Source of the DNA: a virus
Length of the DNA stretch: 22,343 bases
Strand: one strand, 5' to 3'
Virus record (IMG/VR): IMGVR_UViG_3300023171_000041
Span: 1 to 22,343 of that record
The position numbers were made by a program, and so were the translations under genes. How positions within the stretch are numbered: position 1 is the stretch's first letter; every line of letters begins with the position of its first letter. The notes under the pieces are model-generated. The model saw nothing but the letters and a program-made list of their open reading frames with translations, was not told where the DNA came from and made no database searches. This document shows positions 211 to 21,273 of the stretch, piece by piece.

Positions 211-435
211 ATGAACATTATGACGATGAAGGACAAAATAATTAGATATCCGGAAAATTTAAGACTTAAGCATCTTATCATAAAATCCGGAATAACCATT
301 AAACATTTAGCTAATGAAATTGGAGTAAGCAGAGAAGTTTTAAGTAATACCGTTAACGGGCATTATAAAGGTGTGAACGTAATTCCGGCACTCCTAAGGC
401 AGCTGGGATTAACAGATGATTCTTCAAACCTGTAG
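211..435 (+). CDS. Ner/Cro-like small HTH regulator
   Basis: A 74-residue protein, nearly all of it a single helix-turn-helix domain (about residues 18-66, including IKHLANEIGVSREVLSNTV). Size, place as first early gene and the shape of the HTH (short helices followed by a segment ending in LLRQLGL) recall the Ner proteins of Mu-like phages, which turn down early transcription once replication has begun. Three in-frame ATGs (211, 220, 226) are possible starts, and the true one cannot be fixed without a Shine-Dalgarno signal. The gene opens the early operon directly behind the operator region, and its stop lies 4 bases before the most likely transposase start. HTH assignment is fairly sure; the Ner role is inferred from context. 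Confidence 0.7.
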   Translation: MNIMTMKDKIIRYPENLRLKHLIIKSGITIKHLANEIGVSREVLSNTVNGHYKGVNVIPALLRQLGLTDDSSNL

Positions 436-439
436 CTGT

Positions 440-2521
440 ATGCAATATTATAATAACAAATTATGCATCACCTATGCGGAGCTAGTGGGGGCAGCTGAAT
501 ATCCCGGCGTCGTTTCGCTAAATGCATTTATCAGCAAATATGATTATATAAATCTGAGCAAAAATAAGAAGCTCGTTGCTCTTCGCAGAGGTAACAGAGG
601 AACAGCGGCGCTTTATGATTTTGAGGCACTGCCAATGCAGATAAAAAACGCAGTAGCTGTTAAATTTAAAGACATCGTGAAATCCGCTCAGCAGGAACCA
701 ATAAAAAAGATGTTGCAGCAGGATTATAAAGCACTGAGTTTTTTTACAAATTATACTTTGCCGAACGGGACAAACCTTAAAGAGAATACAATCAGACAGT
801 ATACTGCAACGGCTGTCGCCCTTAATACAATCGTTACCCTGCTTAATGATACAAAAGCGTGGCGAAAAGCACTGGGAGGTTCTCCGGGATTAACCGGCTC
901 CTTAAAAAACCTCCTGCATGTTTTAGCTTCCCTGCAAACACAATGGGGCTGGAAACTTCCCGCAGGAGAGCGGGCTATGCGCGATAAGATCAGCAAATTT
1001 AAAACCTTCGGTTATGAAAGTCTGATCAGTGGTAAACTCTGCAATGATAATGCAGCAAAGATTGTAGAAAATGAACAGGAAGCAGTCCTGCGGAGAGCGA
1101 TGGCCCTGGGAAGAAATTTTGATGATGTGCAGGTGATGAAAATTTATAACATGACTGCCGCAGTAGCAGGATGGAAAAAAATCAGCCGGGGAACGGTCGC
1201 CAATAAGCGAAGTGAATGGCAGTTATACGCAGATGCAGGGGCCAGAGGTAAGATCAATCACGACAATGTACATGCCATGCAAGTAAAAAGGAGAGCACCA
1301 AAAGCACCGTTGTTATACTGGACGGTAGATGGCTGGGATGTGGAATTGCTTTATCAGCATAGCCAGGTCAATAAAGCAGGACATCAGACAACAAGCTATC
1401 ATAACAGACTAACTGTGGTCGTCGTTTTAGATCCCTGTGAAAAATATCCTGTTGGATATGCAATTGGTACCCACGAAACACCAGTGCTGATCAGGGCGGC
1501 CATCAGAAATGCAGTGAAACATACGGCAGAATTATTCGGTGCTTTTCATCAGGTGCATCAATTACAGACCGATCGTTACGGGAAAGGCGCGCTAACTCCT
1601 TTTTATGAGGCTGTTTCACAAGTGTATACGCCTGCAAGAGCGAAAAATGCTAAAGCAAAGGTCATTGAACCTTACTTCAAACATTTAAATAAGAATCACT
1701 GCCAGGCAAAAACAAACTGGTCAGGCTTTGGGCTCACTGCAAAAAAAGAGCATCAGCCAAATGGAGAATACCTGAACCACATACGTCACAGTTTTCCTGA
1801 TCAAAAAGGTTGTACCGAGCAGATTCACGAGATGATTGCTGTGGAGAGACGGCTAAAAGGCAATGCATATAAAAAGGCTTATGAACAATTGAAAGATGAT
1901 CAGAAATTTATCATTTCGCCGGAAGAATTTTTGTACAGGTTAGGAGAGACATCAGGAGATACCAATAGGCTGACCGGCAATGGTGTGAACTTCCAGGTAA
2001 ACAAGCAAAAGTTTGTATATGACAGTTTCGACCCTCAATTCAGAAAAAATAGAAATGTAAACTGGGTTTTAAAATATGATCCTGCAGACATGAGTAGTGT
2101 ATTGGCTGCAAATACCGACGCCTCTTTAAGATTTATGCTTACCGAAAAGTATGAACAGCCTATGGCATTAGCTGAGCGAATAAACGGGGATATCGCTGAG
2201 CTGGAGAAGGTGAAACGTTATAACAAAGAACTCATCAGTGATATCCTCGATACCCAGGCATGCGACTATCAGCTGATAGATGGACTTATTGGTCGTGTGC
2301 CATTATTGACAGAAACACTGGGGAAACTCTTAATTACTGATAGCGATGGACAGCACAAAAACAATAAAAGCCATGTCCGGCTCATGCAGCGGGCAGCCCA
2401 GATCAATATCAGACAGGAAAACCAGTTCGTAAAACAACAAGCTGAAGAGCAGCTTGCAAGAAGAGAGGCCTATCTCGACTCAAAACTTGATGTAAACCAA
2501 TTTTTAAACAACAGCAATTAA
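440..2521 (+). CDS. MuA-like DDE transposase
   Basis: About 693 residues if it starts at the ATG at 440, 4 bases after the regulator's stop. An earlier in-frame ATG at 416 overlaps the regulator by 20 bases and is less likely. The size matches MuA (663 residues). In numbering from 416, an N-terminal DNA-binding region is followed by an RNase H-fold catalytic core: YWTVDGWDVELLY (first Asp near 305), LQTDRYGKGALTPFYEAV (second Asp near 386) and VIEPYFKHLNK (Glu near 418), the DDE triad. The C-terminal region (about 540-701) would hold the Mu-type beta-barrel and the part contacting the MuB partner. It would bind the element ends, cut and join strands, and drive replicative transposition. The frame is intact, with no stop or frameshift, so activity is plausible. 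Confidence 0.9.
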   Translation: MQYYNNKLCITYAELVGAAEYPGVVSLNAFISKYDYINLSKNKKLVALRRGNRGTAALYDFEALPMQIKNAVAVKFKDIVKSAQQEPIKKMLQQDYKALSFFTNYTLPNGTNLKENTIRQYTATAVALNTIVTLLNDTKAWRKALGGSPGLTGSLKNLLHVLASLQTQWGWKLPAGERAMRDKISKFKTFGYESLISGKLCNDNAAKIVENEQEAVLRRAMALGRNFDDVQVMKIYNMTAAVAGWKKISRGTVANKRSEWQLYADAGARGKINHDNVHAMQVKRRAPKAPLLYWTVDGWDVELLYQHSQVNKAGHQTTSYHNRLTVVVVLDPCEKYPVGYAIGTHETPVLIRAAIRNAVKHTAELFGAFHQVHQLQTDRYGKGALTPFYEAVSQVYTPARAKNAKAKVIEPYFKHLNKNHCQAKTNWSGFGLTAKKEHQPNGEYLNHIRHSFPDQKGCTEQIHEMIAVERRLKGNAYKKAYEQLKDDQKFIISPEEFLYRLGETSGDTNRLTGNGVNFQVNKQKFVYDSFDPQFRKNRNVNWVLKYDPADMSSVLAANTDASLRFMLTEKYEQPMALAERINGDIAELEKVKRYNKELISDILDTQACDYQLIDGLIGRVPLLTETLGKLLITDSDGQHKNNKSHVRLMQRAAQINIRQENQFVKQQAEEQLARREAYLDSKLDVNQFLNNSN

Positions 2522-2522
2522 T

Positions 2523-3455
2523 ATGAAAGAAGAATTAAAGATCCAGATAGTTGATGCACTTGAATATTGGATGGTTCAACATCCCGGCGTATCCCAGAAT
2601 GATATTGCAGCTAGTGCAGATATAAATGCCGGTTATCTGATGAATATGAGAAAAAAGGACTTTAACATTCGGTCCGGCGCCAGAATTGTACAGATATCTG
2701 ATAAATATTTTTTAAGAGTTGCCCGGTTTGTAGGTTTTGAAATCGCACTGAAGCACTGGGAAACCCGGACGACGATTCAATTAAAAGATGTGCTGACCAG
2801 TCTTTCAATCGCCAAAGCGAACAGTGAAACCACAGTTTTAATAGGTGAAACAGGTTGCGGTAAAACCTATAGTCTTGACACTTTCAAGAGTAAATTTCCC
2901 ACAGAAGTATTTACCGTTAAAGTTGGGGCTTCGGATAATCTGAGGGATCTGATTGCAAAAGTGCTGACGGCCCTGAAAATTACTTGTCCTAAATATACAA
3001 GTTCGGCCCGGCTGGGGCAGGTTGCTTTACGTCTGAAAATCCTTAAGGAACAAGGTTTAATGCCTGTACTCGTTTTTGATGAGGCGGAATATATGAAGTA
3101 CGCTGCATTATGTGCCTTTAAAGAACTATACGATGTCCTGCATAAGGATTGTGCCCTCGTATTGATAGGTACAAACGAGTTGCTCACCAATATAGAAAAG
3201 TTGCTGAAGACCAAAAAACCAGGAATAGCGCAGTTATTCAGGCGGATTAAATTCAGGATCCATGAATTACCGGCAATAGATAAAAGGTTTGAGCAGTTCC
3301 TGAATGGTACCGAACCATCTCTTAAAAAATGGCTGCAGCAGCACTGTGATAATTATGGCGAGCTGCATGATGTGATGGTTCCGGCTTTTGCTGAAGCTGA
3401 AAGGAGTAATCTGCCGGTTACGTTAGACCTGGTAAAAACAGTATTGGGCATATGA
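2523..3455 (+). CDS. MuB-like AAA+ ATPase (transposition target selection)
   Basis: 310 residues, the same size and domain order as MuB: an N-terminal HTH (about residues 20-60, SQNDIAASADINAGYLMNMR) followed by an AAA+ domain. Walker A is GETGCGKT at 108-115, Walker B is VLVFDEAE at 182-189, and a sensor-1-like LIGTNEL lies near 214-220. MuB proteins form ATP-dependent filaments on target DNA, deliver targets to the transposase and give target immunity. The gene starts one base after the transposase stop, the classic A-B order of Mu-like elements, so the two are surely co-transcribed. All nucleotide-binding residues are present. A TniB-type name would be equally defensible from sequence alone, but the HTH plus AAA+ layout favours MuB. 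Confidence 0.88.
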   Translation: MKEELKIQIVDALEYWMVQHPGVSQNDIAASADINAGYLMNMRKKDFNIRSGARIVQISDKYFLRVARFVGFEIALKHWETRTTIQLKDVLTSLSIAKANSETTVLIGETGCGKTYSLDTFKSKFPTEVFTVKVGASDNLRDLIAKVLTALKITCPKYTSSARLGQVALRLKILKEQGLMPVLVFDEAEYMKYAALCAFKELYDVLHKDCALVLIGTNELLTNIEKLLKTKKPGIAQLFRRIKFRIHELPAIDKRFEQFLNGTEPSLKKWLQQHCDNYGELHDVMVPAFAEAERSNLPVTLDLVKTVLGI

Positions 3456-4078
3456 AAAGAGGAATTACACCAGCCGAACTGGACGCTATAAAATTTGAAG
3501 TATTTGATTTTGATGCAGAATGGTTTGAAGCATTTGACCAGCCTGAGATTACAGGCGTGTGGTTTATCTGGGGCCACAGCAGCAACGGAAAAACCAGTTT
3601 CACCTTAAAGCTGATCAAATACCTTACTACTTTTGGCAAAAAGGTAGTCTATAACAGTCTTGAAGAAGGGCGACGTAAAACAATGCAAAATGCATTCCGC
3701 AGGGCGGGTATGAGGGAAGTAACCGGCAAGGTTCTCCTCGTTCAGGAGTCAATGGAAGAGTCCGCCCTGCGACTTAAAAAGCGGGGCAGTGCCGATGTCC
3801 TGGTGATTGATAGTTTTCAATATGCGGGTCTTTCTTTTAAACAATATCTGGCCTTTAAAAAACTATACCCTAAAAAGCTTATCATTATTATCAGTCAGGC
3901 TGAAGGTAAAACACCAAAAGGAAGAGCAGCAAAAGACGTCATGTTTGATGCCGATCTCAAAGTATGGGTAGAAGGGCACAGGGCAATCTCTAAAGGCAGA
4001 TATATAGGTAAAAAAGGATACTATACAAACTGGATTGACGGAGCAGCGCGATACTGGGGACAGGAGCTACTGGACTGA
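3452..4078 (+). CDS. DnaB/RadA-type RecA-fold ATPase
   Basis: 208 residues with a RecA-like nucleotide-binding core. Walker A is GHSSNGKT at 41-48. The strand with the likely catalytic Glu reads VVYNSLEEG (64-72), as in DnaB and RadA, and Walker B is VLVID at 116-120. A Gln after a run of Ile (IIIISQ, about 147-152) matches the position of a RecA-family sensor. A basic tail (KGRYIGKKGYY) could contact DNA. It overlaps the MuB-like gene by 4 bases (ATGA). It lacks the DnaB N-terminal domain and is about half the length of a replicative helicase. Likely an accessory replication or recombination ATPase for the element; the exact role is not known to me, and canonical Mu has no such protein. Confidence 0.7.
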   Translation: MKRGITPAELDAIKFEVFDFDAEWFEAFDQPEITGVWFIWGHSSNGKTSFTLKLIKYLTTFGKKVVYNSLEEGRRKTMQNAFRRAGMREVTGKVLLVQESMEESALRLKKRGSADVLVIDSFQYAGLSFKQYLAFKKLYPKKLIIIISQAEGKTPKGRAAKDVMFDADLKVWVEGHRAISKGRYIGKKGYYTNWIDGAARYWGQELLD

Positions 4079-4079
4079 G

Positions 4080-4481
4080 ATGGATAACCAGATACAAAGA
4101 ATCTGTCAATTACTCACGTGGACGCCAGAAGCCTATTGTTTACACCAATACACAGAATATGAACTCTGCATTGCCAGGATATGCCAGCGTTTGCCAGGAG
4201 CAGCCCGTTTGCTTCGCTATTCTACTCCCTTCCGTATTTTTTACAATAATGAGTGGGCATGGAGAAATGAAAACGAGTTTATTCCCTTCGCAAATAGTCT
4301 TACAGAAGATTTGCTGGATATCGACGAAGAAGGGGTTAGTATTTATAAGGGAATGGAATATGGAACACCCTTACTAATAGAAGAATATTGCAGTACACAT
4401 GCTGCACAACAACTTTTCTACAACGAAGAGTTTACTACAAAATATTGTCAAATAGTTGATCATCTGCTAGCTTATGTCTAA
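4080..4481 (+). CDS. Small early-operon protein of unknown function
   Basis: 133 residues from the ATG at 4080, one base after the preceding stop. An upstream in-frame ATG at 4035 would give 148 residues but overlap the ATPase gene by 44 bases, so 4080 is preferred. The protein is rich in aromatic residues and Glu (FYNNEWAWRNENEFIPF), has no signal peptide, membrane segment or motif I recognise, and looks like a compact cytoplasmic domain. It overlaps the next gene by 8 bases, so translation is probably coupled. Position suggests a helper in replication or transposition, but nothing in the sequence shows this. Confidence 0.6.
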   Translation: MDNQIQRICQLLTWTPEAYCLHQYTEYELCIARICQRLPGAARLLRYSTPFRIFYNNEWAWRNENEFIPFANSLTEDLLDIDEEGVSIYKGMEYGTPLLIEEYCSTHAAQQLFYNEEFTTKYCQIVDHLLAYV

Positions 4482-4779
4482 AATATTAGGTCCCGAAAAC
4501 ATTATCAGCGTGGTCTGCGAATCGCTGGACATTTCTGATATCACTATCCCTATCAGAAGAACAGATCTCACCTATGCCCGTTTTATTGCAGTCATGTTAT
4601 TGCTGCGGCATACAAAGCTATCCTATGAAGAAATAGGCCGTGTACTTGGAAGGGACAAAACGACTATATACTGGGCAGAAGCGAGGTGTAAGGAACTGGT
4701 AAAAACCAATAACGGCCATTTCATTTCGAGATGGAGCCAAGTAAACGAAAAATTGAAAACTTATAAACAACAGCTTTAA
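4474..4779 (+). CDS. DnaA domain IV-like DNA-binding protein
   Basis: 101 residues. The middle part (about 32-78) matches the C-terminal DNA-binding domain of DnaA: ARFIAVMLLLRHTKLSYEEIG is the helical lead-in, and LGRDKTTIYWAEARCKEL (58-75) parallels the DnaA signature GRDHTTVLHA. DnaA domain IV recognises DnaA boxes at replication origins; here it stands alone, without the AAA+ domain. It could bind element-specific sites, recruit replication proteins, or act as a regulator. It lies between unknown early genes and overlaps the preceding one by 8 bases. Domain recognition is fairly firm; function is inferred. Confidence 0.7.
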   Translation: MSKILGPENIISVVCESLDISDITIPIRRTDLTYARFIAVMLLLRHTKLSYEEIGRVLGRDKTTIYWAEARCKELVKTNNGHFISRWSQVNEKLKTYKQQL

Positions 4780-4790: not shown

Positions 4791-5432
4791 ATGGAAAATA
4801 CAGCAATTAATTTAACGACAAGCGAGCTTAAATTTTTATTAGCGAAGAGAGAAAAAGAAGAGAGAGAACTTCTGGAGAAACAAAAACGTGAATATATCGC
4901 CGTCAGAGACAATAATATTGAGACCCTGGTAGACGAGGCAGAACAGTTAGGACTTGCATTAAGTCGTTTTAAGCTTAAGGTGCATGCCATTATGGATGAG
5001 CAGGCGGATAAGCTTGCCGCCTATGGTAAACTTAGAGGAAATAGTAAAGGAGGTTTTGCGATTACCAACAGTTCAAAAGACCTGAAGGTAGTTCGCCGCC
5101 GCGATACTGAGCCGGTATGGGATGAAAGAGCAGTCAAAGCCATAGAACTGATCAAAGACTTCCTGGGTACTACCATTAAAAAGCGCGATGTAAAGCTTTA
5201 TGAGATACTCATCAAGTTTCTGGAGCGCAACATAAAGGGTGACCTGGAATATTCGAAAGTATTTGGTTTGATGGAACATGAAGATAAATTCGACGATCAA
5301 CGCTGGAGAGAAGGGCTGCGTTTACTTAAAGAAAGTTATTCTATTTCATTAAAGAGTTTTGGATATGAGTTTAAGCAAAAAACATATGCAGGGAAATGGG
5401 ATTCACTCGGATTAAATTTTTCAAGCCTCTAG
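4791..5432 (+). CDS. DUF3164-like early phage protein
   Basis: 213 residues resembling the DUF3164 family, which is found in the early operons of Mu-like phages. The N-terminal third is charged and probably coiled-coil (residues 10-75, with LAKREKEERELLEKQKREY). The middle carries FAITNSSKDLKVVRRRD, and the C-terminal half is helical with many charged residues. No catalytic motif is visible. The family's molecular role is not established; position suggests a part in replication. The start at 4791 follows the DnaA-like gene by 11 bases and no better ATG lies nearby. Confidence 0.7.
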   Translation: MENTAINLTTSELKFLLAKREKEERELLEKQKREYIAVRDNNIETLVDEAEQLGLALSRFKLKVHAIMDEQADKLAAYGKLRGNSKGGFAITNSSKDLKVVRRRDTEPVWDERAVKAIELIKDFLGTTIKKRDVKLYEILIKFLERNIKGDLEYSKVFGLMEHEDKFDDQRWREGLRLLKESYSISLKSFGYEFKQKTYAGKWDSLGLNFSSL

Positions 5433-5787: not shown

Positions 5788-5991
5788 ATGCGTGATCCCG
5801 AACTTAAAAGACAAAGAGACAACTTAATTTACCAGCGTTACTGCCAGTTATGGGGAGAACAACAACTTCGTGAAGAAGTGATCTGGCCAATACTCACCGC
5901 CGAATTCCACCTAACTCAGCGAACAATTTACAGGATCATCCTGCAGCAGACAAAATTACCCTTGTCTAATCAGGAAGACACTATTAAGTAA
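5788..5991 (+). CDS. Small HTH protein, candidate late-gene activator
   Basis: 67 residues, almost wholly one helical DNA-binding unit. The N-terminal part is rich in Arg, Gln and Tyr (residues 1-25); the second half, LTAEFHLTQRTIYRIILQQ (about 36-54), reads as a helix-turn-helix like those ending Mor/C-type or sigma-4-like regulators. It has its own promoter behind a strong terminator, between the early and the structural genes, where Mu carries its middle/late activators Mor and C. Its end overlaps by 8 bases the end of the minus-strand gene that follows, so the two converge. The activator role is inferred from position and HTH; it is shorter than Mor (129 residues), and a different regulator remains possible. 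Confidence 0.55.
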   Translation: MRDPELKRQRDNLIYQRYCQLWGEQQLREEVIWPILTAEFHLTQRTIYRIILQQTKLPLSNQEDTIK

Positions 5992-6526
5992 TGAAATTGT
6001 TCGCCGTACCGATGATCAGTTCAGGGTCGGCCGACCGATGATTTTTCGTCTCGTCTGCACTCTCATCAAGTAACTGCGTCTGGTAATCCGTCACTGTTAC
6101 AATCAGCCGGTCATGATTTATATCCTCCCGCTCTGACACACGGCTCAGCGCCGTGAAACCAATCCCGGAAATTCCTTCCAGCACTTTAAAGACTGCCTCA
6201 TTAAACTCCAGAAACTGTAGTGCTTTTTCCTGATCGGGAGCTCCCAGATGACTGTCAGCTATATTTTCAAATACCGTATGTATACGGATAATTCCCGTTC
6301 CTTTTTGAACCTTATAAGTCGCAGGAGTCCATTTAAACGTGGTAAAGCTGATAAATACTGCAGGGTACAGTATTTTTGGGTCAGGGATGTTGCTCAATAC
6401 CTGGCTATTGTATTTATCTATCCACTGTACCGAGGGCAGAGCCCCCGGCAGGCTCTGATCAAACGTTAATTTCTCTTTCAGGTGATTACTCAATGCCCTG
6501 AAAACATTTCCTTTTATACTCATCAT
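5984..6526 (-). CDS. Candidate tail terminator / tail completion protein
   Basis: 180 residues with a mixed alpha/beta pattern: a helical start (NVFRALSNHLKEKL), a strand pair around YPAVFISFTTFKW and KGTGIIRIHTVFENIAD (about 54-88), and a later strand LIVTVTDYQTQLLD. This ordering resembles tail terminator or neck proteins of the gpU / Mu gp37 kind, which cap the tube and sheath after elongation stops. It is the last gene of a minus-strand operon behind the tape measure. No family is recognised with certainty. If correct, it caps the tail end where a head would attach, and R-type tailocins also need such a cap. Two consecutive ATGs open the gene; either could be the start. Confidence 0.5.
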   Translation of the reverse strand: MMSIKGNVFRALSNHLKEKLTFDQSLPGALPSVQWIDKYNSQVLSNIPDPKILYPAVFISFTTFKWTPATYKVQKGTGIIRIHTVFENIADSHLGAPDQEKALQFLEFNEAVFKVLEGISGIGFTALSRVSEREDINHDRLIVTVTDYQTQLLDESADETKNHRSADPELIIGTANNFIT

Positions 6527-8242: not shown

Positions 8243-8551
8243 TTACTGTGTGTTAGCTGCCATGGTAGCATTAAACTTAGCCAGCTGTGTTTTTAGCGAT
8301 TTAATCTCAAGCGAGAGGCTGTGCTTTTCCTCAAAAGCGGCATAATACTTATCACGCCATTCTTTCACCTCATACTGCAGTTCCTTTACCCTGTCATTGT
8401 TTTCATTCACATTTGCCTGCAGCTGTTGGACCAGCATCATTAAGGCCTGCGATTCATCCTTTTTAGAGCGAAAGAAGTGCTCCCACACTTTAATAATGAG
8501 TCCCCCGCTCAACGCCCCTGCTATAAGCTCTGCATAATTTGATATTTCCAT
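8243..8551 (-). CDS. Membrane-anchored coiled-coil protein
   Basis: 102 residues: an N-terminal hydrophobic segment (about 7-25, AELIAGALSGGLIIKVW), a basic stretch (FRSKKDE), then a long heptad-like helix to residue 94. The topology suggests an inner-membrane anchor with a coiled coil, as in i-spanins or some holin-linked proteins. It is the first gene of the minus-strand operon, 34 bases ahead of the tape measure. A spanin role is possible, but a one-protein spanin candidate already exists at 9505, so this may instead be a tape-measure partner or lysis regulator. Function is open. Confidence 0.55.
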   Translation of the reverse strand: MEISNYAELIAGALSGGLIIKVWEHFFRSKKDESQALMMLVQQLQANVNENNDRVKELQYEVKEWRDKYYAAFEEKHSLSLEIKSLKTQLAKFNATMAANTQ

Positions 8552-9503: not shown

Positions 9504-9504
9504 G

Positions 9505-13110: not shown

Positions 13111-15075
13111 ATGGCATTTGATTTAAAAAAAATATGGCAGTTGCTGCAGGGAACAGAACTTCGCGATGAGTATGAAATACCCGTTAGTGAAGGTGAAGCC
13201 TCCGGTAATACCAAGAAATACAATATTAGTCAGCTGAAAGCACATATCTGGGCTTTTGTGAAACAGCAGATCGGCGAAGTAACGCAAGGTCCGCAAGGTC
13301 CGTCAGGTACCGCTGGTCAGCAGGGACAGCCTGGTCCCGGTGGCGCGAAAGGCGATAGAGGAGACAAAGGTGATCCTGGTTTAAAAGGTGATTCTGGACC
13401 TGCAGGTCCGATAGGAATACAAGGTCCGAAAGGGGACAAAGGTGATGCCGGTAGTGCAGGTGAACAAGGTTTGCAGGGTATTCAGGGAGATCAAGGGATC
13501 CGGGGTATTCAAGGTGAGACAGGTATTGAAGGTCCGAAAGGAGATGTGGGAGTTGGTTATTTTGAGAAGATTCCTGTTACTGTTGACTCAATAGGTGAAT
13601 TTACTATTGACTTTACGCAAAATAATAGACAGGAAAACTTTGGATTGTATCCTAATATAGAGATGTGGCAGGTGGATAATAATGGTGAATATTTCTATAG
13701 CAATTATTACAATAAAACAATAGTTGATAATGCTATTTCGTCAGTTACCATGTCTGCTTTTTTTATAGGATATATTTTGATTAAATCAACGCCAACTGTA
13801 TCGCCTCCAACGCCCGGAACTGGTGGGAATGGTCATGTGGAAGTTATCCCCTATTTAAATCCGGGCAGCCATGAGTTTCTGATTGATTTTACCAAGAATG
13901 ACAGGCAGCAGCTTTTTGGTCTTTACCCTATTGTAGAAGTTTATGCATACATAGGGGGCGATATAGAATTACTAGGTATCGGGGGGTATGAAAAGACTGT
14001 AATAAATGGAATAATAACGAGTATAAAAGCATTTTTACATGGTAATGAAGGATATGTTTTACTTAAGTCTAGTCCCGATGGATCATCTCCGGCTCCTGTT
14101 GATAAATCTGATTATTACGAGATCTTTCCTCTTAAAGGCAGTGATCCCGTTATCATTGATTTTACGCAAAATAATAGAAAAAAACTTTTTGGTCGTTTTC
14201 CATATATAGAAACTTTTCAAACGTATGTTGGAAATCCTTATTATCCACCTAATTACGAGACGCATTTATTTCTTGGTTTCGAAAAAATATTAGCTGCAGA
14301 TGGAAGCATCGAGAATATTACGATACCAGGAAGCATTTATGAAGGATATACAATAATTAAATCAAGTCCAGCTTTGCTGGTTCCAAGTCCGGGAGGGCAA
14401 GATGAGATTCCAGTTAATGGGAATTTTGAAGTAATCAATTTTACCGTGGATAGGACAATTAGTAGTAGTGTTACAGTTGATTTTACTGTGAACAACCGGC
14501 AAGAACTGTTTGGACTTTATCCATTAATAGAAGTTTGGGTTTACGTGGAAGATGGAACTGGTAGTAGAAAGGAGACTACGATTTCAACTTTTTTCACTAA
14601 GTCTTTCGAAAATGATGGTTTAAAATCTATTTCCTTTGATGTGAATGATGATGGATACCTGATTCTAAGATCAAGTCCGACCGCTTCAGCTCAAAATCCT
14701 GTTAATGAGTCTGTAATCAAAATTCCTGCAAATTCAGATTATACCATAAAAGGAATAGGTTATAACAACTTCATCACAGTCCCTGAAAACCTGGATAATG
14801 TGGAAAGGTCATTGGTATTTCCGAGTGCATCTGCAAACCCCGGTAAGCAAATGACCTTCTTTTTGTCTGGTACATGGGGCGAGACTAATAACGTCTGGAA
14901 ATTAACTTCTACTGGGGGCGGTAATATTGTGGATCCAAATTATAAAGCGTTTGCAAATGGCTTCCGCGCAACTTCAACTCCAGATGGGCTAGAAGAGTTC
15001 AATCCAAGATTTTTCATCTTTCAAAGTGATGGGGTGAACTGGATGACCGTGAACAACCGCTACGTTCCAAATTAA
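13111..15075 (+). CDS. Collagen-like tail fibre with four tandem beta domains
   Basis: 654 residues. The N-terminal 55 residues (FDLKKIWQLLQGTELRDEYE) probably attach to the tail. Residues 60-149 are 30 uninterrupted Gly-X-Y triplets, a collagen-like triple-helical shaft. There follow four copies of a domain of about 91-106 residues, each opening with DFTxNNRQxLFGLYPxIEVW and closing with GYxxIKSSP, with first Asp codons near 13609, 13885, 14157 and 14475. A different C-terminal domain (about residues 545-654) ends in FFIFQSDGVNWMTVNNRYV. This build suggests a trimeric fibre with repeated binding modules, the part that would touch the target cell. It sits between baseplate genes, not at the operon end, and begins directly after the LysM-like stop. 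Confidence 0.75.
   Translation: MAFDLKKIWQLLQGTELRDEYEIPVSEGEASGNTKKYNISQLKAHIWAFVKQQIGEVTQGPQGPSGTAGQQGQPGPGGAKGDRGDKGDPGLKGDSGPAGPIGIQGPKGDKGDAGSAGEQGLQGIQGDQGIRGIQGETGIEGPKGDVGVGYFEKIPVTVDSIGEFTIDFTQNNRQENFGLYPNIEMWQVDNNGEYFYSNYYNKTIVDNAISSVTMSAFFIGYILIKSTPTVSPPTPGTGGNGHVEVIPYLNPGSHEFLIDFTKNDRQQLFGLYPIVEVYAYIGGDIELLGIGGYEKTVINGIITSIKAFLHGNEGYVLLKSSPDGSSPAPVDKSDYYEIFPLKGSDPVIIDFTQNNRKKLFGRFPYIETFQTYVGNPYYPPNYETHLFLGFEKILAADGSIENITIPGSIYEGYTIIKSSPALLVPSPGGQDEIPVNGNFEVINFTVDRTISSSVTVDFTVNNRQELFGLYPLIEVWVYVEDGTGSRKETTISTFFTKSFENDGLKSISFDVNDDGYLILRSSPTASAQNPVNESVIKIPANSDYTIKGIGYNNFITVPENLDNVERSLVFPSASANPGKQMTFFLSGTWGETNNVWKLTSTGGGNIVDPNYKAFANGFRATSTPDGLEEFNPRFFIFQSDGVNWMTVNNRYVPN
13288..13557 (+). 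repeat. 30 collagen-like Gly-X-Y triplets in the fibre
   Basis: Ninety codons with Gly at every third position and frequent Pro, Lys, Asp and Gln between, including repeated GPKGDKGD-type units. It encodes a rod-like trimeric shaft. Short 9-base units repeat at the DNA level, so length could change by slippage or recombination. Confidence 0.9.
13609..14679 (+). repeat. Four tandem beta-domain modules in the fibre
   Basis: Modules start about 276, 272 and 318 bases apart. The module head DFTxNNRQxLFGLYP and tail GYxxIKSSP are conserved while the inner sequence differs strongly between copies, the pattern of old duplications under diversifying use. Possibly carbohydrate- or surface-binding units; this is inference. 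Confidence 0.8.
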
Positions 15076-15099: not shown

Positions 15100-16632
15100 A
15101 TGAGACGACACATCATTATGCTGTTGCTGGGTTTGGTGACACTCAGCCTTAAAGCACAGGAAACGCCGCCACCATTTGACGGAAATTTTAAACAACTAAG
15201 TACGTCACAATTTTATCTGCACCTGCCAGACTCCGCTGTGTGGCAGTATAAAGGGCTTGCCTATGGGTGGGCACAGTTAGGACGATTTAAAGATATTAAA
15301 AACCTTCATGATCTAATCAGTAATACTCAAACTTCGGTGAATTTAAAAGAGGATAAAAGTAACAAAGTAACTTCCCTAAATAATCCAGATGATTTAACTT
15401 ATCCCACTAGCAAGGCTGTTGCAGATGCAGTTAAAAGTATTGAAAGTCCGACACCTACATTGAACCAGGTGATGTCTGCAGGTAATACAACAGATAAAGA
15501 TATAAATGTAGGCCAGTTCACACTTTCAAGCACATTAAATGTAATACCTAATAAAAATAAAGGAAGATACGCACTCTCAAGTAATGGCAATGTGATAATA
15601 AACCTTCAGGAAGAGGTGGGTATCAATTCGCTTGGTGTTACTAATATTGGTGTTGGAATTAGGGCCTTACTAAATAATTCTGGCACTGAATCGCAAGGTT
15701 TTGGTACTACAGCACTCTATAATAATGCAGGAGCATCTTCGAATGGGTTCGGGAATTCAGCTTTACAGAATAATACTGGGATAGAATCAAATGGCTTTGG
15801 AAATCAATCTTTATCATTCAATACCGGACGGGAATCGAACGGCTTTGGTTATAATTCTGTATCTCACAATACTGGTAGTTCTGCAAATGGTTTTGGGAAC
15901 TATTCCATGGCTAATAATATTGGGTATAACTCAAATGGTTTCGGTAACTCATCCTTAATTAATAATAAGGGAAATTCATCTAATGGTTTTGGTTCTTTAG
16001 CGCTGGGGAATAATGAGGGTAGCTATTCTAATGGGTTCGGTGAACTGACATTGCATGATAATACTGGAGAAGCGTCCGGAGGTTTTGGTTTTGCTGCGCT
16101 ATCAAATAACACAGGTAATTCTTCCAATGGTTTTGGTAATTATTCTCTGCATGATAACACTGGTAGTCAGTCAAATGGTTTTGGTAATTCTGCTCTAAGT
16201 CAAAATAGCGGGATAGCATCTAATGGATTTGGAAATGCTGCTCTAAGTCAAAACAATGGTGGCGCATCTAATGGTTTTGGAAGCTGGACATTGGCATATG
16301 TCGCTGCTGATTCTTATGATTTGACAGCAATTGGTAATGAGGCTGCAATGGGATCTCCGGATGTACCTGTTTCATTTCAGAATTCTACTGCTATAGGAGC
16401 GAAAAGTACAATTACAAAAAGCAACCAGGTTACCTTAGGGAATAGTAATACGGAAGAAGTCCGCACAACTGGTGCTTTTATAAGCAGGCAGTTAAAACTA
16501 TCAAATCTGAATTCCGAACCTATTTCATCTTCTGATACAGGGATTAAAGGTGAGCTCAGGGTAACCGGTGGATTTATCTATGTATGTATTGATACTAACA
16601 CCTGGGTAAGAACTGCACTGCAATCCTGGTAG
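15100..16632 (+). CDS. Signal-peptide-bearing repeat protein, YadA-head-like (fibre or surface protein)
   Basis: 510 residues. The N-terminus is a Sec signal peptide: RRH, the hydrophobic IIMLLLGLVTLSL, and a likely cut after KA or KAQ. Then come a domain ending in LTYPTSKAVADAVKSI (a phrase common in Bacteroidota fibre-like proteins), 13 copies of a 16-residue repeat SNGFGNxSLxxNxGxx (codons 15691-16314) expected to form a beta-solenoid, a YadA-head-like stretch (STAIGAKSTITKSNQVTLGN), and a C-terminal domain with IYVCIDTNTWVRTALQSW. Phage fibres are assembled in the cytoplasm and do not normally carry signal peptides, so it may be exported to the periplasm or cell surface of the producing cell. 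Alternatives: a fibre that acquired a signal, or a lysogenic conversion (moron) gene. It starts 24 bases after the collagen-like fibre gene. Confidence 0.7.
   Translation: MRRHIIMLLLGLVTLSLKAQETPPPFDGNFKQLSTSQFYLHLPDSAVWQYKGLAYGWAQLGRFKDIKNLHDLISNTQTSVNLKEDKSNKVTSLNNPDDLTYPTSKAVADAVKSIESPTPTLNQVMSAGNTTDKDINVGQFTLSSTLNVIPNKNKGRYALSSNGNVIINLQEEVGINSLGVTNIGVGIRALLNNSGTESQGFGTTALYNNAGASSNGFGNSALQNNTGIESNGFGNQSLSFNTGRESNGFGYNSVSHNTGSSANGFGNYSMANNIGYNSNGFGNSSLINNKGNSSNGFGSLALGNNEGSYSNGFGELTLHDNTGEASGGFGFAALSNNTGNSSNGFGNYSLHDNTGSQSNGFGNSALSQNSGIASNGFGNAALSQNNGGASNGFGSWTLAYVAADSYDLTAIGNEAAMGSPDVPVSFQNSTAIGAKSTITKSNQVTLGNSNTEEVRTTGAFISRQLKLSNLNSEPISSSDTGIKGELRVTGGFIYVCIDTNTWVRTALQSW
15691..16314 (+). 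repeat. Thirteen 48-base coding repeats (16-residue solenoid)
   Basis: Consensus SNGFGN[ST][AS]LxxNxGxx, repeated 13 times in register, the last copy ending in a divergent sequence. Codons vary between copies much more than the residues, so protein-level constraint is likely. The array could gain or lose copies by recombination. Confidence 0.88.
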
Positions 16633-16670: not shown

Positions 16671-17042
16671 ATGGAAAAATTCATTCGCCTCCTTCTTGGA
16701 AATAACGACCTGCCTACTTTTTGTGCGGCTATGGTGATCGCTCTGGCGGGAGCCTTAATCTCACTAAAAATCAAGGCAGGGAAGCGCGATAAACTTAGTC
16801 CGGAAACGCCATTTCAGTTCTCCTGGAAGTTCCTTGTTCAGGATAACCTTTTGAAGTTATTCGCCGGTATTCTACCAGTAGTCATTGCCATCAGGTTCTC
16901 TTCGGAGTTCTTTGGTCAGGATTTAACTATGGGCTTTGCCTTTCTGATAGGTCTGGGTAGTGATTCTATATTAAGCAGGCTGGAGAGTTTACAGGAAATG
17001 GCTAGAATATCAGTTTCAGATAAAACAATAAACAACAGATAA
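16671..17042 (+). CDS. Small membrane protein with about three helices, holin candidate
   Basis: 123 residues with hydrophobic segments near 14-34 (LPTFCAAMVIALAGALISL), 59-76 (LLKLFAGILPVVIAIRF) and 86-103, joined by a basic loop (KIKAGKRDK) and ending in a polar tail. Size and topology suit a holin, which the endolysin at 8985 would need, but no holin family is recognised and the gene lies 7 kb from the lysis genes. It is separated from the preceding gene by 38 bases and overlaps the hub gene's start by one base, so it is part of the late operon. Confidence 0.55.
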   Translation: MEKFIRLLLGNNDLPTFCAAMVIALAGALISLKIKAGKRDKLSPETPFQFSWKFLVQDNLLKLFAGILPVVIAIRFSSEFFGQDLTMGFAFLIGLGSDSILSRLESLQEMARISVSDKTINNR

Positions 17043-18022
17043 TGCTCAATCTTTCACTAAATATTGTCATCACAGACCCTAAGGGTAATTATACTTTAGC
17101 ATTTACTTCAGCAGCAACTGTTGAGATAGAAAGCTCCTGGAAAAATCTTACCGATACAGCGAAGATCACTTTACCACGACATATCCGCTTAAAAAATAGC
17201 GTTTACGATGACATCAATAATGTTATTGTCCGTGGTTCGAAGGTAGAAATTAATCTTGGTTACGACGGTGATATGAAAAGAGAATTCACAGGTTATGTTG
17301 CAAAAGTAGATGCAAAGACTCCTTTTTCGATAGAATGTGCAGATGAGATGTGGAAGCTGAAACAAACCACATTCAATAAAATATGGCGCAAGGTAAGCCT
17401 TCGGGAAGTGCTATCTTTTATCTACAAGGGGGAAATAAGGGTTGCCGACATTAACATTGGAACTTACCGGATCGTGAACGCCAGTGCGGCTAAGGTACTG
17501 GACGATTTAAAGGAAATGGGCTTTTATAGTTATTTCCGCTATGATGAAGTATTGAAGGATATTGTGCTTTTTTCTGGGTTTGGAGGTTATGCGCTTGGAA
17601 CCAGTGATAAGGCAGTTTACAACTTTAACAAGAACGTCATAGAGAATAGTCTCAGCTACCGGTTGCAGGAAGATATGAAACTGAAGGTTACTGCGGTTTC
17701 AATGCATAGCGATAATACCAAAGTTGAGGTTGAAATAGGGGATGAGGGTGGTGACAAGCGCTCCTTGCAATGTCCGGTTAATCTGAACAAGGCAGAGGTG
17801 ACTAGTTTTGCGAAAGCAAAGTTTCAGCTGCTGAAGGTAGCAGGGTATAAAGGTGCGGTAACGGGATTCGGTATTCCCTATGTAAAACACGGCGACGTGG
17901 TGACTGTGCAGGATGATATGTTCCCGGAAAGGTCGGGCGCTTACTTCGCAGATACGGTGAAGGTTACTTTTGGTACAGGGGGCTTCAGAAGAAATGTAGA
18001 ATTGGGTTATAAAGCATCATAA
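17042..18022 (+). CDS. Baseplate hub protein (gpD / gp27-like)
   Basis: 326 residues with the layout of hub proteins: a first beta-barrel domain (ATVEIESSWKNLTDTAKITL, then VEINLGYDGDMKREFTGYV), a central domain with a conserved-looking helix (SAAKVLDDLKEMGFYSYF), and a second barrel late in the chain (YKGAVTGFGIPYVKHGDVVT, GAYFADTVKVTFG). This is the fold shared by T4 gp27, P2 gpD and the N-terminal part of VgrG. It forms the trimeric centre on which the spike sits. It is immediately followed by the spike gene. Confidence 0.8.
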   Translation: MLNLSLNIVITDPKGNYTLAFTSAATVEIESSWKNLTDTAKITLPRHIRLKNSVYDDINNVIVRGSKVEINLGYDGDMKREFTGYVAKVDAKTPFSIECADEMWKLKQTTFNKIWRKVSLREVLSFIYKGEIRVADINIGTYRIVNASAAKVLDDLKEMGFYSYFRYDEVLKDIVLFSGFGGYALGTSDKAVYNFNKNVIENSLSYRLQEDMKLKVTAVSMHSDNTKVEVEIGDEGGDKRSLQCPVNLNKAEVTSFAKAKFQLLKVAGYKGAVTGFGIPYVKHGDVVTVQDDMFPERSGAYFADTVKVTFGTGGFRRNVELGYKAS

Positions 18023-18474
18023 TGAAAGAACTGATAAGAGAAATAACAAAGGGTGCATTCGTCGCAACCACAATTGGTCATGTGAAAGCAGTAGATCGGG
18101 AGAATTCAACCTGTGATGTAGAAACCCTGGCTGACGGGGATGTGCTGGACGTGAGGTTAAGGGCGGCTGTGGATGAGCAGCAGAAAGGGATCTTTCTGTT
18201 TCCTAAAATCGGCAGTTCGGTAATCATAGCACCCATAGCAAATAACAGTACCCAATATTATGTGGCCATGTTCAGCGAAGTTGAAGAAATGGTGATCCAG
18301 ATTGAGGGGCAGGTGCTGCAGATAGATAAAGATGGTTTTAGCCTTCGAAATGACAAGGAAGATTTAAAAGCTATCCTGACTACGTTCTGTGAGGAGATGC
18401 TGAAGATCTATGCACCAAAAAATGTACCTGGTATAAATGTTTTAAAAACACGTATTAAAAACCTTCTAAAATGA
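18022..18474 (+). CDS. Baseplate spike protein (gpV-like, OB-fold)
   Basis: 150 residues. Residues about 12-85 fit an OB-fold (FVATTIGHVKAVDRENSTCD, VLDVRLRAAV, GIFLFPKIGSSVIIAPI), followed by a short strand-rich piece (VIQIEGQVLQIDKDGFSLR) that would make a small beta-helix, and a helical tail. This is the P2 gpV / Mu gp45 family that makes the membrane-piercing tip. No HxH metal-binding apex is visible, so the tip is either blunt or completed by another protein. Overlaps the hub stop by one base. Confidence 0.78.
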   Translation: MKELIREITKGAFVATTIGHVKAVDRENSTCDVETLADGDVLDVRLRAAVDEQQKGIFLFPKIGSSVIIAPIANNSTQYYVAMFSEVEEMVIQIEGQVLQIDKDGFSLRNDKEDLKAILTTFCEEMLKIYAPKNVPGINVLKTRIKNLLK

Positions 18475-18689
18475 GTTTAAACAAAAAACAACTGGTTCAG
18501 GATTTAACAACGCTGTATGAAAATACAATGGGTTCCAATACTGATGAGGTAACGGCAAAGGATGACTTTATAAATTATCTGGCAAACGCTATCGATGCCT
18601 ATGTTAAATCGGCAACAATAAAATATAGTGGCGGCTTAACAGCGCCTAATGGTCCGGTTAGTGGAACTTTTAACCATACCATAGAATGA
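18471..18689 (+). CDS. Small baseplate-operon protein of unknown function
   Basis: 72 residues with a helical first half (NKKQLVQDLTTLYENTMG, DDFINYLANAIDAYVKSA) and a short glycine-rich end (YSGGLTAPNGPVSGTFNH). It overlaps both neighbours by 4 bases (ATGA), so it is translationally coupled to the spike and the wedge gene. No family recognised. The end of the spike protein (about residues 112-130) is similarly helical, which suggests the two might meet. Confidence 0.6.
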   Translation: MSLNKKQLVQDLTTLYENTMGSNTDEVTAKDDFINYLANAIDAYVKSATIKYSGGLTAPNGPVSGTFNHTIE

Positions 18690-18994
18690 GTTATGTAAAT
18701 GATATTCTCCTTTCTTCAACAAATGATTTGTTGATAGAAAACGGGGATTTTGTAGTCGGGCCATCTGATGATCAGCATATCATGCTGGTCCTGCTCAACT
18801 CTCCGGGACAACTGAGGCATGAGCCGCTCATTGGTGTTGGCGTACAACGCTATAAAAACAGCAGACTGGACCTGATTGCAATTACCAAACTAAAGCAGGA
18901 AATACGCTTGCAGCTTCAGCTTGATGGCTTTGACGCGGCCACTATTGAAACCATAATTAAAGATCAGGAAATAACCGTAAACGCAGAACGATAA
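18686..18994 (+). CDS. Baseplate wedge protein (gp25/gpW-like)
   Basis: 102 residues matching the small gp25-like wedge family (P2 gpW, Mu gp46): an N-terminal segment (DILLSSTNDLLIENGDFVVG), a helix followed by SPGQLRHEPLIGVGV (about 39-53), and a C-terminal strand-helix part (LKQEIRLQLQLDGFDAATIE). These proteins connect the hub to the wedges and nucleate sheath assembly. They are universal in contractile systems, so its presence supports a complete baseplate. Confidence 0.82.
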   Translation: MSYVNDILLSSTNDLLIENGDFVVGPSDDQHIMLVLLNSPGQLRHEPLIGVGVQRYKNSRLDLIAITKLKQEIRLQLQLDGFDAATIETIIKDQEITVNAER

Positions 18995-19800
18995 TGGCAA
19001 GAGAAACAGAAATTATTTATAACGAAGCCCTGGCAGAAAAGCAGGCACAGCCTGAGCTCGCTCAGCTAAACAGCCCAAGTACAACAGCAATCTGGAGCAA
19101 CTGGTTACGTATTTTTGCAAGTATCATCCACCTTTTTGAAGTTAAGATGGATACCTTTAAAGCTGAAATACAAAATATAATTGATACCAATCAATATGGT
19201 ACATTGTACTGGTGGGCATTGCGTGTTAAAGAGTATCAGCATGGTGATCTTTTACAATTCCTGAATAATCACTTTGTATATCCGGCGATTAATCCTCTTA
19301 AACAAATTGTAGGTCTGGTGTCTATCACCGATGAAAGGGGGATTGTGAAAGTTAAGGCAGCAAAGGTCATCAATAATCTGCCAAAGGAGCTGAGTGCTAC
19401 TGAAGCCGCAGGCTTGCTGTCTTATTGCCAGCAGATCAGGCCGGCAGGTACACGTATAGCGGTGGAAAGTCTTCCTGCCGATTTAATGAAGGTGCGTCTG
19501 AACATCTATTACAATGCACAAATAGACCTTGACACACTCAAACCAGCCGTAGAAGCTGCGTTTATCAACTATATCAACACACTGGAATTTGATGCCGTAT
19601 TTTATGTAAATAAAATGATTGATGCTATTCAGTTGGTACCAGGCGTGATCAAAGAGCAGGTAGAGGTTCTGGATATTGCAGTAAAGCAGGGTTTGGATCC
19701 TTATACACAGTTTACTACCAAGTACCAGGCTAAATCGGGTTATTTTAAGATAGACACAGATCATCCACTATCGTCAACTTTAAATTATATAGCAGGATGA
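18994..19800 (+). CDS. Baseplate wedge protein (gpJ-like)
   Basis: 268 residues in the position and with the features of the baseplate J family (P2 gpJ, Mu gp47, T4 gp6): a helical N-terminus with TTAIWSNWLRIFASIIHLF, a middle beta region (VGLVSITDERGIVKVKAAK), and a C-terminal part with LPADLMKVRLNIYYNAQID and a final KSGYFKIDTD. It forms the wedge ring that opens during contraction. Slightly shorter than P2 gpJ (302). Starts one base before the gp25-like stop and ends 4 bases into the next gene. Confidence 0.75.
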   Translation: MARETEIIYNEALAEKQAQPELAQLNSPSTTAIWSNWLRIFASIIHLFEVKMDTFKAEIQNIIDTNQYGTLYWWALRVKEYQHGDLLQFLNNHFVYPAINPLKQIVGLVSITDERGIVKVKAAKVINNLPKELSATEAAGLLSYCQQIRPAGTRIAVESLPADLMKVRLNIYYNAQIDLDTLKPAVEAAFINYINTLEFDAVFYVNKMIDAIQLVPGVIKEQVEVLDIAVKQGLDPYTQFTTKYQAKSGYFKIDTDHPLSSTLNYIAG

Positions 19801-20279
19801 GGTATTCTTTTAATATCAATAAGCTTATTGATCTGCTATTGGCTAATATGTTTCACAAGCCGGCACATGTTGCCTGGTTGCGCAGCGGGTTGAAGCCTTT
19901 AAAAACGACTTATGCTGAACTGATGACATTGCGGGGCAGCAAACTTGCTGAAGCTACGATTACAAGTTCAGTAAACCGGATCACAAAGGCACTGAATGAT
20001 AAGTTTAATGCCACAGGAATATATTTGGTACACGAACTGGACTACGTAGATAGTGCATTTGAATTTCTTGCGATAGACCCTCACTACGACGAATTTGATT
20101 ACCTGGGGGAAGAAAATCATACGCCGCCGGCCTTTGACTTTTTATCCAGTGAGTATGATCCTGATAATGATTTTATAGTGAGGGTGCCAAATGCTTTAGC
20201 ACTCAGGGTTAATGAAATAAAGGCATTTATTTTTAAACATACAATGGCCGGTCGCCGGTTTAACATAGAATTATATTAA
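19797..20279 (+). CDS. Tail protein I-like baseplate component
   Basis: 160 residues following the gpJ-like gene with a 4-base overlap, the usual place of P2 gpI / Mu gp48. Helical N-terminal part (NINKLIDLLLANMFHKPAHV, LKTTYAELMTLRGSKLAEAT) and an acidic aromatic middle (EFLAIDPHYDEFDYLG), ending in IFKHTMAGRRFNIELY. Such proteins attach fibres to the wedge. Family assignment is from order and size more than from motifs. Confidence 0.6.
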   Translation: MRYSFNINKLIDLLLANMFHKPAHVAWLRSGLKPLKTTYAELMTLRGSKLAEATITSSVNRITKALNDKFNATGIYLVHELDYVDSAFEFLAIDPHYDEFDYLGEENHTPPAFDFLSSEYDPDNDFIVRVPNALALRVNEIKAFIFKHTMAGRRFNIELY

Positions 20280-20280
20280 T

Positions 20281-21162
20281 ATGAAAGAGCTTTTAAAAAT
20301 ACAAGGTGGATATCCACGTCAGATGGATTATCTTTTTAATCTGCAAAATGAATTGTTTACCATGAATAATTCTCTTTTTGCAGGATTGGGAATGGATCTG
20401 GCACTATCCGGATGTGCAGTGACTGATCACGGAAACGGATCTGTCGACATTGCATCAGGATTGGTTTACGTTGGGGGAGAGGTGCTGCGGTTTGATGGTG
20501 TTTCAAATCTTACCGGCTTTACTACCAAGACCCTCTCCAAAGGTCCGTTCGTAGCGACAGATCCAAAGATATTTGCAGATCAGCAAGCGAAAAATGTTTA
20601 CCGTGAGGCTAAAGCTGTAGTGACTGAGCGGTCTTCTGTTCTGCAACTGCAGATCAAAAATACTAACCTGTATAATCTCAAGGATTATATCAGTGATACG
20701 GTTTCTGCGGCTGATGTAAAAGGAGCGATCAGGCAGATTTATGATCTGGATAATACCTTACTCGCTAACTTTGATAGTTCTGGACTGGGTATTTCTGCAA
20801 GATGGAATGGATGGGCGCTGATGAATGGTCAGAATGGTACGAGAGATGTTCAGGGTAAAGTCCTGATTGGTACCGGAAGGTTTACTGATCCGCTCACTGG
20901 TATCCAGACCGTATATGGTAATGGAGATTCGGGGGGTGAGAAATCCCATAAACTGATTGTTGCTGAAATGCCCAGGCATAATCATGGTTCTGGTAGAGGA
21001 CCAAGTCGTGACAGAGCCCGTGGGGATTTAAATACTGTGGGTTTTAATGGCTCAAATTATACTTTTAACGCCGATGAATGGACAGCACCGGCAGGTGATG
21101 ATCTTCCCCATAATAACATGCAACCCTATGTAGTTGTATATTTCATTATGAAAATAGCCTAG
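20281..21162 (+). CDS. Tail collar / receptor-binding protein
   Basis: 293 residues. The first 170 (KELLKIQGGYPRQMDYLFNL) would bind the baseplate, with a helix-rich linker. The last 120 are a phage tail-collar domain: WNGWALMNGQNGTRDVQGKV, then GEKSHKLIVAEMPRHNHG and the end DDLPHNNMQPYVVVYFIMKI. The paired histidine motifs (HNHG and PHNNMQPY) are standard for collar and short-fibre C-termini, where the histidines can hold metal. It would act in target contact. It is the last gene of the late operon, followed 6 bases later by a terminator hairpin, and probably the rightmost gene of the element. Confidence 0.75.
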   Translation: MKELLKIQGGYPRQMDYLFNLQNELFTMNNSLFAGLGMDLALSGCAVTDHGNGSVDIASGLVYVGGEVLRFDGVSNLTGFTTKTLSKGPFVATDPKIFADQQAKNVYREAKAVVTERSSVLQLQIKNTNLYNLKDYISDTVSAADVKGAIRQIYDLDNTLLANFDSSGLGISARWNGWALMNGQNGTRDVQGKVLIGTGRFTDPLTGIQTVYGNGDSGGEKSHKLIVAEMPRHNHGSGRGPSRDRARGDLNTVGFNGSNYTFNADEWTAPAGDDLPHNNMQPYVVVYFIMKIA

Positions 21163-21168
21163 CATAAA

Positions 21169-21213
21169 TTTAAGACCTTGATCATTCAAGGCCTTAAATC
21201 TTTTTCGTTTTTT
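21169..21213 (+). terminator. Terminator of the late operon
   Basis: Hairpin with 6 bp, one mismatch and 6 bp around a 4-base loop TCAT (arms 21169-21181 and 21186-21198), followed by TCTTTTTCGTTTTTTTG. It lies 6 bases after the collar-protein stop and would insulate the chromosome from late transcription. Confidence 0.8.
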
Positions 21214-21229
21214 TGATGAATTTAAGCAG

Positions 21230-21273
21230 TTCCGGACATTTTGTTTTTAAATTCCCGAATTTTCATTTTGGCA
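21230..21273 (+). repeat. Two tandem 22-bp units, candidate right end of the element
   Basis: TTCCGGACATTTTG... (21230-21251) and TTCCCGAATTTTCA... (21252-21273) agree at 14 of 22 positions and abut exactly. MuA-type transposases bind adjacent 22-bp sites near each end, and element ends read 5'-TG / CA-3'. The second unit ends in GGCA. The real junction may be a few bases to the right. The left end is not in the window, so no comparison or target-site duplication can be checked. Confidence 0.35.

What the first reader, a model, noticed from the sequence alone, without database searches (positions are those of the whole stretch)
211..21273. Mu-like transposable element with a complete contractile tail but no head genes: a candidate mobile tailocin
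Seen: intact MuA-like and MuB-like genes, then regulators, lysis genes, sheath, tube, chaperones, tape measure, a complete-looking baseplate, fibres and a collar protein, then a terminator and a chromosomal gene. No terminase, portal, protease, scaffold, capsid or connector gene is recognisable in 21 kb of densely packed genes. Known: in Mu the head genes lie between lysis and tail, and R-type tailocins are headless tails with lysis genes that are normally immobile and regulator-bound. Inference: this element combines tailocin function with its own transposition machinery. It could spread bacteriocin-like particles between chromosomal sites, or be a satellite that lends tails to a helper's heads.
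Basis: partly seen in the sequence, partly recalled or inferred. Interest (0 to 1): 0.9.

Follow-up and report, generated by a model that had tools for sequence, protein, structure and literature searches.

The report
Transposable headless phage-tail (tailocin) element
This is a jumping DNA element from a Pedobacter-like bacterium that kept the transposase, contractile tail and lysis genes of a Mu-like virus but lost every head gene, most likely a bacteria-killing tail particle (tailocin) that can move within genomes, and the same design has arisen at least four times in related bacteria.

Summary
The window is a 22.3 kb virus record cut at its left end; the element runs to about 21280, beside a Pedobacter-like host gene. 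Profiles built from complete relatives find no head, packaging or neck gene in it, nor in a syntenic relative (G409, one-contig Pedobacter chromosome) that supplies the missing repressor side. Compared with the closest complete phages, three separate blocks of head and neck genes are gone, while the tail and lysis genes lying between them (Mu-type tail terminator, tape measure, a coiled-coil protein) remain. Tail genes and MuA both evolve under purifying selection. The two copies sit at different chromosomal sites. Nine such headless elements were found, eight with MuA; trees place the headless+MuA state in at least four separate lineages among complete phages. None of the eight genomes checked carries a related terminase or portal, which argues against a resident helper. 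Best reading: a transposable R-type tailocin. Killing particles and active transposition are inferred: no target-site duplication was confirmed for a headless copy, and no particles were examined. Ten literature searches found no described mobile tailocin.

The parts
211..435 (+). Ner/Cro-like HTH regulator
   Evidence: Pfam HTH_26, PHROG 1468; 75% identical in G409
416..2521 (+). MuA-like DDE transposase, 701 aa, candidate triad D305/D386/E418
   Evidence: PHROG 310 E 8e-30; 42% to phage TCUEAP3 MuA; D-D-E kept in G409, G348, G252, G003, L011, L012
2523..3455 (+). MuB-like AAA+ target-selection ATPase
   Evidence: AAA_22 6.5e-17, TniB-like, PHROG 296
3452..4078 (+). Early ATPase conserved in Bacteroidota Mu-like phages
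   Evidence: PHROG 6891 E 3e-71
4474..4779 (+). DnaA C-terminal-type DNA-binding protein
   Evidence: Bac_DnaA_C 3e-12
4791..5432 (+). DUF3164 early protein of Mu-like phages
   Evidence: Pfam PF11363 1.9e-11, PHROG 846
5788..5991 (+). Small HTH protein, candidate late activator, last early gene
   Evidence: PHROG 532 late activator, weak (E 0.011); 79-87% identical in G409; similarly placed HTH genes in other headless elements
5984..6526 (-). Mu-type tail terminator (cap), homologue of Peternella gp29
   Evidence: PHROG 6911; AlphaFold model matches phage Mu terminator 9khy Z 14.7 and pyocin R2 collar Z 12.4
6559..8208 (-). Tape measure protein, 549 aa
   Evidence: PHROG 27166 E 1.9e-28; same strand and order in complete phages G001, G002
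8243..8551 (-). N-terminal hydrophobic plus coiled-coil protein, probably lysis or tail related
   Evidence: 48% identical to a gene between adaptor and TerL in complete phage L013/G001
8985..9503 (+). CHAP endolysin
   Evidence: Pfam CHAP 6e-9, PHROG 9589
9472..10038 (+). Lipoprotein with C-terminal membrane segment, probable spanin
   Evidence: Sequence (LNIVAC lipobox, terminal hydrophobic stretch); 41% in G001 at the same place
10041..11228 (+). Contractile tail sheath (DUF2586)
   Evidence: Pfam DUF2586 6e-44; PHROG 907
11230..11661 (+). Tail tube protein
   Evidence: PHROG 4579 E 5e-32; 94% in G409
11661..12005 (+). Tail assembly protein following tube, probable chaperone
   Evidence: PHROG 19076; position
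12209..12814 (+). Baseplate hub (DUF6046)
   Evidence: Pfam DUF6046 8e-36
12811..13110 (+). LysM-like small tail protein
   Evidence: Weak LysM match; syntenic homologues
13111..15075 (+). Collagen-like fibre
   Evidence: PHROG tail fibre matches
15100..16632 (+). Fibre-region repeat protein with signal-peptide-like N terminus, variable between relatives
   Evidence: Only residues 1-69 conserved in G409; sequence
16671..17042 (+). Holin
   Evidence: PHROG 6384 holin E 0.001; 76% in G409
17042..18022 (+). Baseplate hub (gpD-like)
   Evidence: PHROG 4930 E 3e-72
18022..18474 (+). Spike gpV-like
   Evidence: PHROG 5275; position after the hub
18471..18689 (+). Small baseplate-region protein
   Evidence: Syntenic homologues in G409, G159, G003
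18686..18994 (+). gpW-like baseplate wedge
   Evidence: Position; homologues across loci; gpW name inferred
18994..19800 (+). Baseplate J-like wedge
   Evidence: PHROG 38413 7e-30, PHROG 6 baseplate wedge 2e-5
19797..20279 (+). gpI-like baseplate protein
   Evidence: Same place after J as Peternella gp59 family; name inferred
20281..21162 (+). Tail fibre/collar protein
   Evidence: PHROG 8469 tail fibre 6e-15
21171..21280 (+). Terminator-like hairpin and predicted right end (...TTTTGGCACTTATA)
   Evidence: Similarity to the genome ends of TCUEAP3, Peternella and the G409 right end
21431..22343 (+). Host gene outside the element (LolE-like permease), cut by the record end
   Evidence: 79-88% protein identity across Pedobacter genomes

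Best explanation
A transposable R-type tailocin. It descends from a Winoviridae-like Mu phage of Bacteroidota that lost all head, packaging and neck genes but kept its repressor-controlled early module (Ner, MuA, MuB, ATPase), lysis genes and a complete contractile tail. On derepression the late genes would make tails capped by a Mu-type terminator, released by holin, endolysin and spanin, that kill related cells chosen by the fibres. The retained transposase lets the locus move to new chromosomal sites and may also raise its copy number on induction. Shown: gene content, selective loss of head genes, purifying selection, different sites, repeated origin. Inferred: particle formation, killing, transposition activity and spread between cells by hitchhiking.
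For: Eight head/neck HMMs: no hit inside any of nine headless elements, strong in held-out complete phages. Order against complete phage G001: neck, then headmorph/portal/adaptor, then TerL/TerS/protease/capsid are missing, while terminator, tape measure and coiled-coil genes between them remain. The retained minus-strand gene models as the phage Mu tail terminator / pyocin R2 collar. G409 is syntenic, with the same junctions; all shared genes open, dN 0.04-0.34 against saturated or near-saturated synonymous sites, MuA included. G409's element lies between genes that are neighbours in other Pedobacter genomes, far from lolE, the window's flank. Headless+MuA state in 4 (sheath tree) or 5 (MuA tree) separate places. 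No related TerL or portal in the eight genomes.
Against: No particle, killing or transposition data. No clean target-site duplication found for G409 or G159 and only an ambiguous one for G252, although complete phages G348 and G001 show the expected 4 bp. G409 has an in-frame deletion in MuB and has lost DUF3164; G004 lacks MuA and MuB, so mobility can decay. Without a head the element cannot transfer itself between cells.
Confidence: 0.75

Rival explanations
1. A decaying Mu-like prophage that happened to lose its head genes by deletion and has no present function.
For: Defective prophages are common; MuB truncated and DUF3164 lost in G409; no clean target duplication in G409 or G159.
Against: Three separate losses removed only head/neck genes; tail genes and MuA open and under purifying selection since the shared loss; the same outcome in several lineages.
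Confidence: 0.12
2. A satellite that lends tails to, or is packaged by, a helper phage's heads.
For: Mobile element lacking virion genes, as in phage satellites; a helper could arrive by infection.
Against: No related TerL or portal in any of eight host genomes; neck gpG lost while the terminator is kept; no packaging or hijacking gene recognised.
Confidence: 0.06
3. A domesticated, effectively immobile tailocin in which MuA/MuB serve regulation or copy-number increase only.
For: G004 is a related headless element without MuA and MuB, so the tail locus persists without transposition genes; the Hymenobacter locus L005/L025 is headless without MuA.
Against: Window and G409 copies lie at different sites with shared head-loss junctions; G159 and G232 share the element but no flanks; MuA conserved.
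Confidence: 0.2

Closest known systems
Winogradskyella phage Peternella_1 (Winoviridae, Mu-like myophage; PMC8776804)
   Same: Repressor, MuA, MuB, ATPase, DUF3164, tail terminator, sheath, tube, hub and baseplate homologues in a similar order
   Different: Complete phage with head and packaging genes between the early and tail modules and a virion with a head; sheath about 29% identical
Complete Mu-like prophages G001/L013 (Sphingobacteriales MAG JN15.004) and G002/L014 (Mucilaginibacter MAG)
   Same: Closest complete tails (sheath 44-49%), minus-strand tape measure and terminator; coiled-coil gene in G001
   Different: Carry terminase, portal, protease and capsid; distant MuA
BceTMilo R-type tailocin of Burkholderia cenocepacia (PMC5411513)
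   Same: Headless contractile tail with lysis genes; also lost the gene that docks the tail to a head
   Different: P2/KL3-derived; no transposase mentioned in that paper
Hymenobacter sp. CRA2 headless locus (L025; overlapping IMG/VR record L005)
   Same: Same tail gene family, terminator kept, no head genes
   Different: No MuA; separate head loss in the sheath tree

Membership tests
R-type tailocin | Complete contractile tail: sheath, tube, tape measure, baseplate, fibres, terminator | tested here: met
R-type tailocin | No head-formation or packaging genes | tested here: met
   for the window and, for the part left of base 1, relative G409; for eight host genomes
R-type tailocin | Lysis cassette in the same locus | tested here: met
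   CHAP endolysin, spanin-like lipoprotein, holin
R-type tailocin | No nucleic-acid replication genes (definition in PMC12090994) | tested here: not met
   MuA, MuB, ATPase and DnaA-like genes present and conserved; this is what makes it a variant rather than an ordinary member
R-type tailocin | Tail particles that kill related bacteria | not testable with these tools
   Needs induction, microscopy and spot tests
Mu-like transposable element | MuA DDE transposase followed by MuB ATPase | tested here: met
Mu-like transposable element | Insertion at varied sites | tested here: met
   Window beside lolE, G409 between EamA and DUF2851 genes; G159 and G232 flanks unrelated
Mu-like transposable element | Short target-site duplication at defined ends | tested here: inconclusive
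   4 bp in complete phages G348 (AATG) and G001 (ACTT); none in headless G409 or G159, ambiguous in G252; left end of the window not held
Mu-like phage (virus) | Own head and packaging genes | tested here: not met

The most novel reading that the evidence does not exclude
A recurrent class of self-mobile bacteriocin elements: Mu-like phages of Bacteroidota repeatedly shed their head genes and persist as transposable tailocins, with transposition used to move and possibly to multiply the weapon locus on induction.
Probability: 0.5. Interest if true: 0.88.

Novelty: new variant of a known kind. Interest (0 to 1): 0.76.

Why it matters
Tailocins are usually described as domesticated loci without replication genes. 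A repeatedly evolved form that keeps a phage transposase offers a route by which such weapons relocate and spread, provides natural replicates of head loss, and makes it testable why transposition genes are kept by an element that can no longer package DNA.

Tried and rejected
Assembly artefact from the minus-strand tape measure: rejected, the complete phages G001 and G002 have the same order and G409 is syntenic in one contig. Head genes hidden left of base 1: made unlikely by G409, where only a repressor lies there. Resident helper: no related TerL or portal in eight genomes. Search for close relatives by MuA in viral contigs: none. PDB sequence search with MuA and sheath: no hits. Rfam and tRNA: none. 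Target duplications in headless copies: not found or ambiguous. A first version of that scan had swapped arguments and is void. G159 left flank in five related genomes: no match, so no empty site for it. Flavobacteriaceae survey (397 genomes): four MuA+sheath pairs by position, all at complete-phage spacing of 18-21 kb. BceTMilo as a Mu-like precedent (recalled from memory): rejected, it is P2-like.

Full report
The window is a complete 22,343-base IMG/VR record. ORF listing and family searches show, on the plus strand, a Ner-like regulator, MuA, MuB, an ATPase, a DnaA-type protein, DUF3164 and a small HTH protein; then on the minus strand a PHROG 6911 protein, a tape measure protein and a coiled-coil protein; then on the plus strand CHAP endolysin, spanin-like lipoprotein, sheath, tube, hub, fibres, holin, hub D, spike, wedge, J, I and a collar fibre. 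From 21431 follows a host permease gene, 79-88% identical at the protein level to homologues in Pedobacter; the genus name rests on Pedobacter cryoconitis genomes G003 and G004 being returned within the genus of G409.

Base 1 lies inside the element. In G409, a single-contig chromosome of 5.39 Mb, the syntenic element has only a repressor (about 3899-4348, minus strand, oriented coordinates) and the left end region beyond the point where the window starts. The right end is placed near 21280 by likeness to the genome ends of phages TCUEAP3 and Peternella and to G409.

Head genes. I built HMMs for portal, head morphogenesis, TerL, TerS, protease, major capsid, adaptor and neck gpG from complete relatives. 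None matched any ORF of at least 40 aa in the stretches holding nine headless elements (window, G409, G252, G400, G159, G232, G003, G004, L085) except one weak TerS-like hit (E 0.02) at 43.4 kb in the G232 stretch, about 7 kb past its last fibre-region genes. Held-out complete phages G348 and G001 matched all eight and G002 six; sheath and tube matched in all twelve. TerL and portal alignments found nothing in the eight headless genomes but hits in ten of the eleven other genomes searched; G384 had neither and is unresolved.

What was lost. In complete phage G001 the order is terminator, neck, tape measure, head morphogenesis, portal, adaptor, coiled-coil, TerL, TerS, protease, capsid, a 142-aa protein, lysin, spanin, sheath. 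In the window it is terminator, tape measure, coiled-coil, lysin, spanin, sheath. Three separate blocks are gone, made up of head and neck genes (plus that unassigned 142-aa gene). The PHROG 6911 protein, modelled with 12 homologues (pLDDT 80), matches the phage Mu tail terminator (Z 14.7) and the pyocin R2 collar (Z 12.4). Keeping the terminator while losing the neck parallels BceTMilo, which lost the P2 S gene that docks the tail to the capsid (PMC5411513).

Selection. Window and G409 align across the junctions, so head loss was probably shared. Every shared gene is open in G409, including a 692-aa MuA (the stop reported is not inside that ORF). dN is 0.04 (tube) to 0.34 (tape measure), with synonymous sites saturated or nearly so, so only the direction (purifying), not exact ratios, can be claimed. 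MuB in G409 has an in-frame N-terminal deletion and DUF3164 is absent.

Sites. In G409 the element lies between an EamA-type and a DUF2851 gene; these are close neighbours (about 46 bp apart in G418) in many other Pedobacter genomes, while lolE is 2.6 Mb away. G159 and G232 share the element (about 82% nucleotide identity) but not the flanks. G409 flanks show an imperfect duplication of about 35 bp rather than a clean short one. Complete phages G348 and G001 show 4-bp duplications, in line with the 4-bp repeats reported for Porphyromonas transposable phages (PMC10367356).

Recurrence. MuA end to sheath start is 5-8 kb in headless elements and 17-21 kb in complete phages (from ORF coordinates). 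Of 400 Sphingobacteriaceae genomes, 19 have the sheath: six headless with MuA, one headless without MuA (G004), ten complete, two unresolved (G081, G384). The MuA tree needs five changes of the headless label and the sheath tree four, all forced by well-supported branches. Module exchange between phages could lower the number of independent losses. L085 is a Bacteroidales case and was not in the sheath tree.

Literature. Ten searches in open-access full text found no mobile or transposable tailocin. [quoted passage not shown] Subscription journals and preprints were not covered.

Noticed in passing
Right ends of G159 (L153/L154), G232 (L155/L156), G400 (L151/L152), G003 (L157/L158): Arrays of alternative fibre genes sharing a repeated start (MAKQTLNTIKNWFKTGLKPTQQQFWDTWDSFWHKDQVIP); a similar start occurs in G252. 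They could widen or switch target range.
   Followed up: partly
window 15100-16632: A protein in the fibre region with a signal-peptide-like N terminus and about a dozen NNTGxxSNGFGN-type repeats; G409 keeps only its first 69 residues.
   Followed up: partly
window 8556-8747: A small ORF at the junction left by the lost terminase-to-capsid block, conserved only in G409 (79% over 29 residues); could be a gene or a conserved regulatory region.
   Followed up: partly
L048/G004 (Pedobacter cryoconitis S3M1): A related headless element that lacks MuA and MuB but kept repressor, DUF3164 and tail: apparently an immobile derivative.
   Followed up: partly
L026, L029, L030, L032 (Flavobacterium): Sheath clusters without recognised head genes and with hub genes upstream, in a different order; possibly another tailocin or contractile injection type.
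   Followed up: no
window 5698-5726: Strong inverted repeat between early genes and the small HTH gene, probably a terminator.
   Followed up: no
G409 flanks (L147/L148), oriented coordinates 3340-3370 and 23961-24005: About 35 bp of imperfect direct duplication of host sequence on both sides, longer than the 4 bp seen in related complete phages; unexplained.
   Followed up: partly
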